Assembly: GCA_001821295.1 (NCBI GenBank)
Contig: MHSK01000035.1
Coordinates: 1-38,814, forward strand
Source: Candidatus Taylorbacteria bacterium RIFCSPLOWO2_12_FULL_43_20
GTDB taxonomy: Bacteria; Patescibacteriota; Minisyncoccia; Phycocordibacterales; HO2-43-120
DNA: 38,814 bases
Direction: 5' to 3'
In this document: one piece after another, positions 4,189 through 35,464 of the stretch
Position numbering within the stretch: the first letter of the stretch is position 1
Layout of the letters: each line of letters starts with the position of its first letter
The notes under the pieces: generated by a model
The model's database searches: none
What the model was told of the DNA's origin: nothing
Seen by the model: only the letters and a program-made list of their open reading frames with translations
Position numbers and translations under genes: made by a program

Positions 4189-4335
4189 CTCCGACGCTTC
4201 GGTCGGAGCCCCGACCAAAGCGTCGGGGATGGATATACGAATAGGAAGAAGAAATAAAGACACCCCATCGCTCCGCAGAATTTATCCGATAAATTCTGCG
4301 GAGCACTTCCCCTCTAAAGAGGGGAAGGGGAGGAA
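4189..4335. repeat. Palindromic hairpin (GACGCTTCGGTC family) plus pyrimidine-rich repeat module
   Basis: Positions 4189-4228 hold one of six copies of an approximately 38-bp palindrome ('ctccgacgcttcggtcggag' and its near complement). In this copy the second arm has 'ccaaag' instead of 'ccgaag', so it is slightly decayed. It is followed by the 'caccccatcgc ... cttcccctct ... agaggggaag' module, which ends just before the stop of the protease gene. Confidence 0.85.
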
Positions 4336-7052: not shown

Positions 7053-7109
7053 ATTCTTCCACCCCAAGAATGTCAACGCTTAGCGTTGACATTCTTGGGG
7101 TGGAAGAAT
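7053..7109. repeat. 57-bp perfect palindrome (28-bp arms, 1-nt centre)
   Basis: Arms 7053-7080 and 7082-7109 are perfectly complementary around a single T. The core 'aagaatgtcaacgct' arm and its complement recur at 34647-34681 with 17-bp arms. It sits between the promoter side of the metallophosphoesterase gene and the terminator of the zinc-ribbon gene, and could form a cruciform or RNA hairpin on either strand. Confidence 0.9.
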
Positions 7110-8457: not shown

Positions 8458-8493
8458 TACCGCTATTTGTCGCTATAGCGACAAATAGCGGTA
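8458..8493. repeat. 36-bp perfect palindrome
   Basis: Arms 8458-8475 and 8476-8493 ('taccgctatttgtcgcta' and its exact complement). A decayed second copy lies at about 17110-17150. It lies between the VIT-type gene and the GlsB-type gene. The surrounding 8346-8578 spacer also holds 'cgcgctttcgcg' and a partial 'ccgcttaac' repeat, but no gene. Confidence 0.9.
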
Positions 8494-9115: not shown

Positions 9116-9155
9116 CTCCGACGCTTCGGTCGGAGCTCCGACCGAAGCGTCGGGG
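9116..9155. repeat. GACGCTTCGGTC-family palindrome, copy 2
   Basis: An intact 40-bp hairpin element, 'ctccgacgcttcggtcggag' followed by its complement. Copies lie at 4189, 16921, 18713, 28965 and 35225, each next to 'aatacgaata'-type AT-rich spacer. Confidence 0.9.
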
Positions 9156-9220
9156 ATGAATACGAATAATTAGAAGTCGACTCTTGCGGTATATCTTCTT
9201 AATTCTTACCGTTCTTTTTA

Positions 9221-9334
9221 AGAGCCCATCCACTATCTCCTTCGAGTTCCTCAGGATGGTGAAGCAATTGAACCATAATGGCAGGCAAGCCATGTCTTGC
9301 TTTATATCTGGTGGTTAGATCGTGGATGGGCTCT
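9221..9334. mobile_element. MITE-like element with 13-bp terminal inverted repeats
   Basis: 'agagcccatccac' at 9221-9233 and its exact complement at 9322-9334 bound a 114-bp segment. A related element with the same AGAGCCCATC ends lies at 18310-18496, and a solo end is at 17198. The interior contains 'ttcctcaggatggtgaagca', which also occurs at 14899-14937. The right end lies inside the 3' end of msrB and supplies its last codons, as expected for an insertion. Confidence 0.7.
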
Positions 9335-9718
9335 AAGATCGAGACAGACAGAGTTCATGCAATAGCGCTTCCCTGTATTCGTCGGACCATCATTAAAAAC
9401 ATGGCCAAGGTGGGAACCGCATTTCGCGCAAACAATCTCTGTGCGCGCCATACCGAGCGATCGATCTTCACGCTCAGTAATGGATCCCGGTAAAGCTTCA
9501 TCAAAAGACGGCCAGCCGGTACCGGAATCAAATTTGGCTTTGGAGGAAAATAAATGATTACCACAAGCGGCGCAGGCGTACGTGCCGTCTTTGTTCTCAT
9601 GCACGTACTTGCCGCTATAAGGCGCTTCCGTACCCTTCTCGCGCATTACGCGATATTCTTCTTCGGTCATCTTTTCCTTCCATTCCGTATCACTTTTTGG
9701 CAAATTTTTTTCTTCCAT
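9302..9718 (-). CDS. msrB: Peptide-methionine (R)-S-oxide reductase MsrB
   Basis: 138 aa, the usual single-domain MsrB size. It reduces methionine-R-sulfoxide in proteins. Visible features: structural zinc pairs 'YACAACGN' and 'IVCAKCGSH', the core 'FDSGTGWPSFDEAL', and the active-site region 'GKRYCMNSVC' with the catalytic Cys in RYC. The last residues ('LRAHPRSNHQI') are encoded by the terminal inverted repeat of the adjacent MITE-like element, replacing the normal C-terminus beyond the catalytic Cys. The catalytic core is intact. A decayed msrA lies just upstream. Confidence 0.93.
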   Translation of the reverse strand: MEEKNLPKSDTEWKEKMTEEEYRVMREKGTEAPYSGKYVHENKDGTYACAACGNHLFSSKAKFDSGTGWPSFDEALPGSITEREDRSLGMARTEIVCAKCGSHLGHVFNDGPTNTGKRYCMNSVCLDLRAHPRSNHQI

Positions 9719-16859: not shown

Positions 16860-17150
16860 AGAAGCTTTTAGCTGTCAGCTATTAGCTATTAGCTCGCTAG
16901 TTAAAAACACAAATCAACGACTCCGACGCTTCGGTCGGGGCTCCGACCGAAGCGTCGGGTATGATGACGAATGCTACAAATGGAGAAGAACATTTAACAT
17001 GGACAATTGACAGCTGACGGGATTGCTCGAAATTTTAAATTTGTAATTTTAAATTTTAAAATAATGATTAATATTAAATTTTGAATTTGCGGATGAGGAG
17101 AAATTCCTACATACCGCTATTTGTCGCTATAGCGTAAAATAACGGTATGT
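16860..17150. repeat. Composite repeat block with palindromes
   Basis: In order: 'gctgtcagctattagctatt' module (also at 28916 and, modified, 34571), a GACGCTTCGGTC-family palindrome (16921-16960), AT-rich 'catggacaattgacagctga' module (16989-17065), and a decayed copy of the 36-bp palindrome of 8458-8493 (about 17110-17150). No gene is seen between 16795 and 17288. A solo AGAGCCCA end of the MITE-like family is at 17198. Confidence 0.85.
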
Positions 17151-18712: not shown

Positions 18713-18750
18713 CCGACGCTTCGGTCGGAGTCTCGACCGAAGCGTCGGGG
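18713..18750. repeat. GACGCTTCGGTC-family palindrome, copy 4
   Basis: 'ccgacgcttcggtcggag' then 'tctcgaccgaagcgtcgggg'. The centre differs from other copies (TCTC). It lies between the stop of the hypothetical gene and its terminator, so it would be transcribed as a 3' UTR hairpin. Confidence 0.88.
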
Positions 18751-28910: not shown

Positions 28911-29110
28911 TTTAGTTGTCAGCTATTAGCTATTAGCTCGCTAGTAAAAAACACAAATCAACGACTCCAACGCTTCGGTCGGAGCCCCGACCGAAGCGTC
29001 GGGGATGAATACGAATGGGAAAGAAAAGAAGACACCCCATCCCTCGTACCCCTTCGCTCGAAGCGAGCTTCGGCGGAGCAAGAGAGGGGAAGAGGGGGCG
29101 GGGAGAAGAA
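28911..29110. repeat. Composite intergenic repeat block
   Basis: 'gctattagctattagctcg' module, a GACGCTTCGGTC-family palindrome (28965-29004, with 'ccaacg' for 'ccgacg' in the first arm), then the 'caccccatc ... cttcgctcgaagcgagcttc ... agaggggaag' module. The remaining 29111-29258 holds no gene; 'ttcaag ... cttgaa' around 29173-29203 could be a small hairpin. Confidence 0.85.
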
Positions 29111-34646: not shown

Positions 34647-34681
34647 TCAAGAATGTCAACGCTTAGCGTTGACATTCTTGA
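34647..34681. repeat. 35-bp palindrome, second copy of the 7053-7109 core
   Basis: Arms 34647-34663 and 34665-34681 ('tcaagaatgtcaacgct' and complement) around a single T. It lies just past the terminator of the structured RNA. The spacer 34512-34646 has 'agctgttagctattggctgt' and 'acctgacatgaacaattgac' modules. Confidence 0.9.
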
Positions 34682-34694
34682 CCACGAAGGAATT

Positions 34695-34730
34695 AAAAAA
34701 TCGCTGTCTATCAAAGATAAAGACAGCGAT
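34695..34730 (-). terminator. Intrinsic terminator of the structured RNA
   Basis: A 10-bp stem (34721-34730 'agacagcgat' with 34700-34709) followed on the minus strand by TTTTTT. It ends the putative RNA transcribed from the promoter at 34939-34967. Confidence 0.88.
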
Positions 34731-34932
34731 TGTCGTGAGCCGAAGCCCAAAAATAGCTCCTAAGGGGCCGAAGAACACAGGTGGCGGCTGCGGATATTGC
34801 CGAACATTGCAAATCCAACGCGTTTGCTACCGCGACAGCAAACAGCCAGCCCTGGCTGCTCATTAGATGAGCCGCTACAGCCGCCACCTCCTCATACTCA
34901 CGAACGCCCGGCAAAAAAGGCATCCGTGTAGC
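34695..34932 (-). ncRNA. Putative highly structured small RNA, about 235 nt, family not identified
   Basis: The GC-rich transcript has its own promoter and terminator. Nested helices (plus coordinates): outer helix 34897-34903 with 34733-34739 (7 bp, perfect); closing helix 34878-34889 with 34779-34790 (12 bp, perfect). Inside are four hairpins: 34858-34863/34867-34872 (6 bp), 34844-34848/34853-34857 (5 bp), 34822-34828/34837-34843 (7 bp) and 34792-34800/34809-34816 (8 bp, one bulge). Signature motifs of tmRNA, SRP RNA and RNase P RNA are not seen. A 70-codon frame overlaps it, but it has no ribosome-binding site and little leader, so an RNA gene is the better reading. Confidence 0.68.
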
Positions 34933-34938
34933 ATATAA

Positions 34939-34967
34939 AGATTAACAAAGTTTTAACCTTGTGTCAA
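34939..34967 (-). promoter_or_regulatory. Sigma-70-type promoter of the structured RNA
   Basis: TTGACA at 34962-34967 and TAATCT at 34939-34944 with a 17-bp spacer. The start is expected near 34932, at the 5' end of the folded region. Confidence 0.72.
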
Positions 34968-35183: not shown

Positions 35184-35464
35184 ATTTTTTAAATACAAAT
35201 ATACGAATTAATACGAATATCCATCTCCGACGCTTCGGTCGGAGCCCCGACCGAAGCGTCGGAGATGTATACGAATAAGAGGAAAGAAGAAGGAACACCC
35301 CATCGCCTCGCAGACTCCCCCTTCGCTAGGAAGCTAAGGCGGGACACGGTCGGCACTTCCCCCCTAACTCCCCTTCGCTCGAAGCGAGCTTCGGCGGAGT
35401 AAAAGAGGGGAAGAGGAAGACAAACAGAATGTTCGAGTACTGTCCGTGTGAAGTTTATCAGAAA
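35184..35464. repeat. Composite intergenic repeat block
   Basis: 'aatacgaatat' spacer, a GACGCTTCGGTC-family palindrome (35225-35263), then the 'caccccatcgcctcg ... cagactcccccttcgctagg' and 'cttcgctcgaagcgagcttc' modules, almost the same as in 37188-37310. No gene is seen. Confidence 0.85.

What the first reader, a model, noticed from the sequence alone, without database searches (positions are those of the whole stretch)
34690..34967. Candidate structured non-coding RNA with its own promoter and terminator
Between prfB and tRNA-Thr, a 235-nt GC-rich minus-strand segment folds into a nested multibranch structure: 7-bp outer helix, 12-bp perfect closing helix and four hairpins. It is bracketed by a TTGACA-17-TAATCT promoter and a 10-bp-stem intrinsic terminator. 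It does not show tmRNA, SRP or RNase P signatures. Perfect long-range helices at this density are unlikely by chance in a 238-nt stretch. It may be an undescribed CPR RNA or a divergent member of a known orphan family (the raiA motif RNA and 6S RNA should be tested).
Basis: partly seen in the sequence, partly recalled or inferred. Interest (0 to 1): 0.85.

Follow-up and report, generated by a model that had tools for sequence, protein, structure and literature searches.

The report
Orphan structured small-RNA gene beside prfB
A stretch of DNA between a threonine tRNA gene and the release-factor-2 gene of a Paceibacteria (Parcubacteria) genome most likely encodes a small, strongly folded RNA of about 235 bases with its own promoter and terminator; it matches no known RNA family and no relative of it could be found, so its function is open.

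Summary
On the minus strand, between tRNA-Thr(CGU) and prfB, lie a TTGACA-17-TAATCT promoter with an extended TGn motif, a GC-rich segment with a 12-13 bp closing helix around hairpins, and an intrinsic terminator. The promoter motif is the only one of its kind in the 38.8-kb window (0.05 expected). The whole unit folds better than every dinucleotide shuffle (z about -6), but much of that is terminator and leader hairpin; core z is -3.4. The proposed 7-bp outer helix is not favoured in the full transcript: a leader hairpin beats it by 8.6 kcal/mol. "Unlikely by chance" is overstated, because this genome is full of palindromes and other spacers fold more extremely. No Rfam family matches. RNase P lies elsewhere; SRP RNA, Ffh and 6S are undetected in the order. 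A covariance model hit only the sequence itself among 397 genomes, so covariation cannot be tested. Other genomes carry unrelated promoter-fold-terminator units upstream of prfB, but a control on other spacers gave no clear enrichment (p=0.07). Best reading: a lineage-specific, independently transcribed small-RNA gene, function unproven. Interest moderate to low.

The parts
34962..34967 (-). -35 element TTGACA
   Evidence: sequence
34939..34947 (-). extended -10 TGTTAATCT (TAATCT at 34939-34944)
   Evidence: the only TTGACA-N-TGnTAnnnT in the window, 0.05 expected
34899..34928 (-). leader hairpin (11 bp), just after the inferred start near 34932
   Evidence: MFE and pairing probability 1.0; -19.7 kcal/mol on the minus strand against -7.7 on plus
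34877..34889 (-). 5' arm of the closing helix AGGUGGCGGCUGU
   Evidence: pairing probability about 1
34779..34791 (-). 3' arm of the closing helix GCAGCCGCCACCU
34858..34872 (-). hairpin 1 GCUCAU-CUA-AUGAGC
   Evidence: probability 0.73; absent from the MFE
34845..34856 (-). hairpin 2 GCCAG-GG-CUGGC
   Evidence: probability 0.93
34822..34843 (-). hairpin 3 GUUUGCU...AGCAAAC
   Evidence: probability 0.73; absent from the MFE
34792..34816 (-). hairpin 4 GGAUUUGC...GCAAUAUCC, stacked on the closing helix
   Evidence: probability 0.93
34744..34769 (-). 3' tail hairpin GGCCC...GGGCU
   Evidence: MFE
   Evidence: 8.6 kcal/mol worse than the leader-hairpin fold in the full transcript
34695..34731 (-). 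intrinsic terminator, 11 bp + 3 bp stem and six T
   Evidence: sequence and fold; the tool's strict scan missed it
34695..34932 (-). inferred transcript, about 235 nt
   Evidence: inference from promoter and terminator

Best explanation
A lineage-specific, independently transcribed small-RNA gene. Transcription starts near 34932 from the TTGACA/TGTTAATCT promoter. The RNA folds into a leader hairpin, a domain closed by a 12-13 bp helix holding two to four hairpins, and a tail hairpin, and ends at the terminator near 34695. The closed, GC-rich fold would make it a stable RNA that most likely acts in trans, by pairing through its exposed loops and linkers or by holding a protein, rather than a messenger or a leader of prfB. 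Shown: promoter and terminator sequences, strand-specific folding of the leader hairpin, no known family, no Pfam match in its frames. Inferred: that it is transcribed, and any function.
For: The promoter motif is unique in the window and correctly placed; a terminator lies at the other end; the full fold beats all shuffles and the leader hairpin is strand-specific. The long-range helix is stronger than in every shuffle. Neither the 70-codon nor the opposite 78-codon frame has a Pfam match. A promoter-like site (TATGCTAATCTACATAC-ATG) abuts prfB, which argues against a simple leader. Structured promoter-fold-terminator units also occur upstream of prfB in relatives.
Against: No homologue by blastn in 98 relatives or by covariance model in 397, so there is no covariation or conservation evidence. 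The -10 hexamer is only 3 of 6. Core z is -3.4 and the genome is rich in palindromes. No transcript data.
Confidence: 0.6

Rival explanations
1. A non-functional or weakly expressed mosaic of palindromic spacer DNA: this genome accumulates inverted repeats in spacers, and a promoter and a terminator happen to flank one.
For: Three dispersed palindrome families in the window, one with 31 half-site hits in the genome, a copy sitting just past this terminator; other windows fold with z to -12; no homologue.
Against: The RNA core is single-copy in the genome and not one of those palindromes; the promoter motif is unlikely by chance; the leader hairpin is strand-specific.
Confidence: 0.22
2. A 5' leader of prfB: the terminator works as an attenuator and the fold senses a signal to adjust release factor 2.
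For: It lies directly upstream of prfB on the same strand, with a terminator in between.
Against: The terminator is about 190 bp from the prfB start with a palindrome in between; a promoter-like site abuts prfB and similar ones are seen in relatives. No obvious anti-terminator pairing with the terminator stem in the fold. Many relatives have tRNA-Thr abutting prfB with no room for such a leader.
Confidence: 0.1
3. A divergent member of a known housekeeping RNA (6S, SRP, tmRNA, RNase P, raiA).
For: 6S and SRP RNA are not recognised in this order, and no tmRNA passes the cut-off in this genome.
Against: No sub-threshold match to any of them here. An RNase P candidate is found at contig C7. Ffh's RNA-binding domain is undetected too, so no SRP RNA is expected; loss of SRP in Parcubacteria is published (PMC4508563). 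No tRNA-like domain here.
Confidence: 0.05
4. A member of an order-wide RNA gene kept by position upstream of prfB whose sequence changes very fast.
For: About a dozen genomes carry a promoter-fold-terminator unit there, most with z below -2 without the terminator.
Against: No shared motif, and no pairwise similarity beyond one weak pair; presence varies within a genus (G062 against G329); rate in other spacers is not clearly lower (4 of 15 against 6 of 70, p=0.07).
Confidence: 0.1

Closest known systems
Orphan bacterial intergenic sRNA genes (own promoter, intrinsic terminator)
   Same: promoter, compact GC-rich fold, terminator, no ORF with known domain
   Different: no expression evidence and no homologue here
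raiA motif / ModT RNA (PMC11706538)
   Same: GC-rich, multibranched structured RNA of about 200 nt (size from memory)
   Different: no Rfam match; raiA RNA is reported from Bacillota and other phyla
6S RNA (RF00013)
   Same: stand-alone transcript of about 200 nt
   Different: no match; fold is a multibranch domain rather than a long rod with a central bubble (recalled architecture)

Membership tests
Independent bacterial sRNA gene | own promoter and terminator | tested here: met
   as sequence motifs: promoter; terminator
Independent bacterial sRNA gene | discrete transcript | not testable with these tools
   no transcriptome held
Independent bacterial sRNA gene | conserved structure with covariation | tested here: inconclusive
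   no homologue found in 397 genomes
Any Rfam 15 family incl. raiA, GOLLD, ROOL, HEARO | score at or above gathering threshold | tested here: not met
6S RNA | match to RF00013 | tested here: not met
   no match here; none over cut-off in 51 genomes
SRP RNA | match to RF00169/RF01854 and an Ffh partner | tested here: not met
RNase P RNA | match to RF00010 at this locus | tested here: not met
   the genome's RNase P candidate is at C7:10952-11491, 51.8 bits, below the 100-bit cut-off
tmRNA | tRNA-like domain, match to RF00023 | tested here: not met
Small protein gene | known domain in the frame | tested here: not met
   70- and 78-aa frames without Pfam hit; conservation of the frame not testable

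The most novel reading that the evidence does not exclude
The spacer upstream of prfB in this Paceibacteria order holds a structured RNA gene kept by position while its sequence turns over almost completely even within genera; the RNA in the window is one such member, possibly serving a global role in lineages without SRP and detectable 6S RNA.
Probability: 0.1. Interest if true: 0.6.

Novelty: new member of a known kind. Interest (0 to 1): 0.3.

Why it matters
I found no published catalogue of small RNAs in Paceibacteria among the papers searched here, and the standard 6S and SRP RNAs are not recognised in this order. A well-delimited candidate with promoter and terminator is a concrete target for RNA-seq. 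The control also warns that strong folding alone is not evidence in these palindrome-rich genomes.

Tried and rejected
Rfam at gathering and at E up to 10: nothing relevant. Blastn in 98 relatives: only self; the rest are hits of about 15-40 nt. Single-sequence covariance model R1 in 397 genomes and on neighbouring loci: only self. SRP hypothesis: rejected. Insertion at the tRNA-Thr 3' end: the 9-nt repeat CTTCGGCTC is not significant (p=0.29), although clear duplications exist in other genomes. Shared motif among the prfB-upstream RNAs: none beyond shuffles; G008 against G091 aligns weakly (p=0.008, terminators included) and no other pair stands out. Phages, plasmids, viral contigs: nothing; the viral scan was an exact 20-mer only. 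The strict terminator and promoter scan reports neither feature because of its loop and -10 rules.

Full report
WHAT IS THERE. The window is contig 35 of a 1.0-Mb genome of the Paceibacteria/Parcubacteria lineage: the named records with the nearest prfB include Candidatus Paceibacterota and Parcubacteria MAGs. Minus-strand order is a PAS histidine kinase, tRNA-Thr(CGU), the candidate, prfB, an ftsE-like ABC ATPase, ftsX. The candidate has TTGACA at 34967-34962, a 17-nt spacer ending in TGT, TAATCT at 34944-34939, and a terminator stem at 34731-34699 followed by six T. TTGACA with an extended -10 occurs once in the whole window against 0.05 expected; without the TGn requirement there are four sites against 1.2 expected, so the extended motif carries the weight.

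FOLD. The transcript of 34690-34940 folds at -108.1 kcal/mol, z -6.07, no shuffle as good. By parts: core 34733-34903 z -3.4, closing helix with hairpins z -4.5, terminator alone z -6.5, leader hairpin z -4.4. The closing helix has pairing probability about 1. The 7-bp outer helix is displaced by an 11-bp leader hairpin, which is 8.6 kcal/mol better. That leader hairpin is far more stable on the minus strand (-19.7 against -7.7 kcal/mol; G-U pairs on one strand become A-C mismatches on the other), which favours the minus strand as the RNA.

IS IT MORE THAN CHANCE? Yes against shuffles; less so against this genome. The window holds dispersed palindromes: CCGACGCTTCGGTCGG six times as a hairpin, AAGAATGTCAACGCT twice as a hairpin and 31 times as a half-site in the genome, TACCGCTATTTGTCGCTA twice. 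Many windows reach z of -6 to -12. Three perfect long-range repeats of 12 bp or more exist in the window against 0.3 expected. The candidate core, however, is single-copy and is not one of these palindromes.

KNOWN FAMILIES. Rfam finds only the two tRNAs, and at E up to 10 only irrelevant short hits. The genome's RNase P candidate is at C7 (51.8 bits, below the 100-bit cut-off). Small and large SRP RNA are undetected in 40 and 31 genomes, and the Ffh M domain in 31 (controls 14 of 14); published work already reports loss of SRP in Parcubacteria (PMC4508563). 6S is not over the cut-off in any of 51 genomes. tmRNA passes the cut-off in 44 of 51 genomes, not in this one.

RELATIVES. Only one other genome of the same genus is held (prfB 74% identical). 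blastn in 98 genomes and a single-sequence covariance model in 397 found only the window itself. A single-sequence model with 0.59 bits per position cannot reach strongly diverged RNAs, and genomes in this order diverge deeply, so absence is weak evidence.

POSITION. tRNA-Thr next to prfB is widespread in the order; in many genomes they abut. In about a dozen others, promoter-fold-terminator units lie upstream of prfB; 11 of 14 such RNAs without terminator have z below -2, four with a long-range helix rarely matched by shuffles. They share no motif and no pairwise similarity stands out except a weak one between G008 and G091. These 14 were picked by eye. Strict units were 6 in 84 regions against 0.15 in shuffles, though one of the six (G115) overlaps a protein gene. 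The proper control is other spacers: units occurred in 7 of 72 spacer-strands of 20-kb stretches from relatives, one of them prfB's own spacer, and the corrected comparison is 4 of 15 against 6 of 70, p=0.07. The ORF mask used there removes GC-rich RNA regions, so that test is weak and inconclusive. Rapid turnover of bacterial sRNAs in reduced genomes is known (PMC8557413).

CONCLUSION. A lineage-specific small-RNA gene is the most likely reading (0.6). Spacer DNA without function is the main rival (0.22). A prfB leader is unlikely because of the distance, the second promoter-like site next to prfB and the lack of such a leader in most relatives. Function is not shown.

Noticed in passing
window 4191-4226, 9118-9153, 16923-16958, 18713-18748, 28967-29002, 35227-35262: Dispersed hairpin CCGACGCTTCGGTCGG-N4-CCGACCGAAGCGTCGG, six copies: a REP-like palindrome family.
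   Followed up: partly
window 7053-7109 and 34647-34681: Second palindrome family AAGAATGTCAACGCT; 31 exact half-sites in the genome, none of the reversed control; one copy lies just past this terminator and one half-site about 60 nt past the RNase P match on C7.
   Followed up: partly
window 8458-8493 and 17109-17150: Third palindrome family TACCGCTATTTGTCGCTA.
   Followed up: no
whole genome G000 and 30-40 relatives: No SRP RNA and no Ffh M domain in any genome tested; SRP loss in Parcubacteria is already published (PMC4508563).
   Followed up: yes
whole genome G000: No tmRNA over the Rfam cut-off although 44 of 51 genomes searched have one; could be a contig gap.
   Followed up: no
L042 1262-1460, L184, L049: Elements of about 110-170 nt between tRNA-Thr and prfB flanked by an exact 19-21 nt copy of the tRNA 3' end, as after site-specific insertion.
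   Followed up: partly
L186 and L166, upstream of prfB: Short unit in two genomes: TATAAT promoter, hairpin with the shared stretch CCTGGCGGACGTGCC and a T-run; looks like a small conserved RNA.
   Followed up: no
window 9200-9360: A 13-bp long-range inverted repeat with z -3.2, overlapping the 3' end of a 138-aa minus-strand frame.
   Followed up: partly
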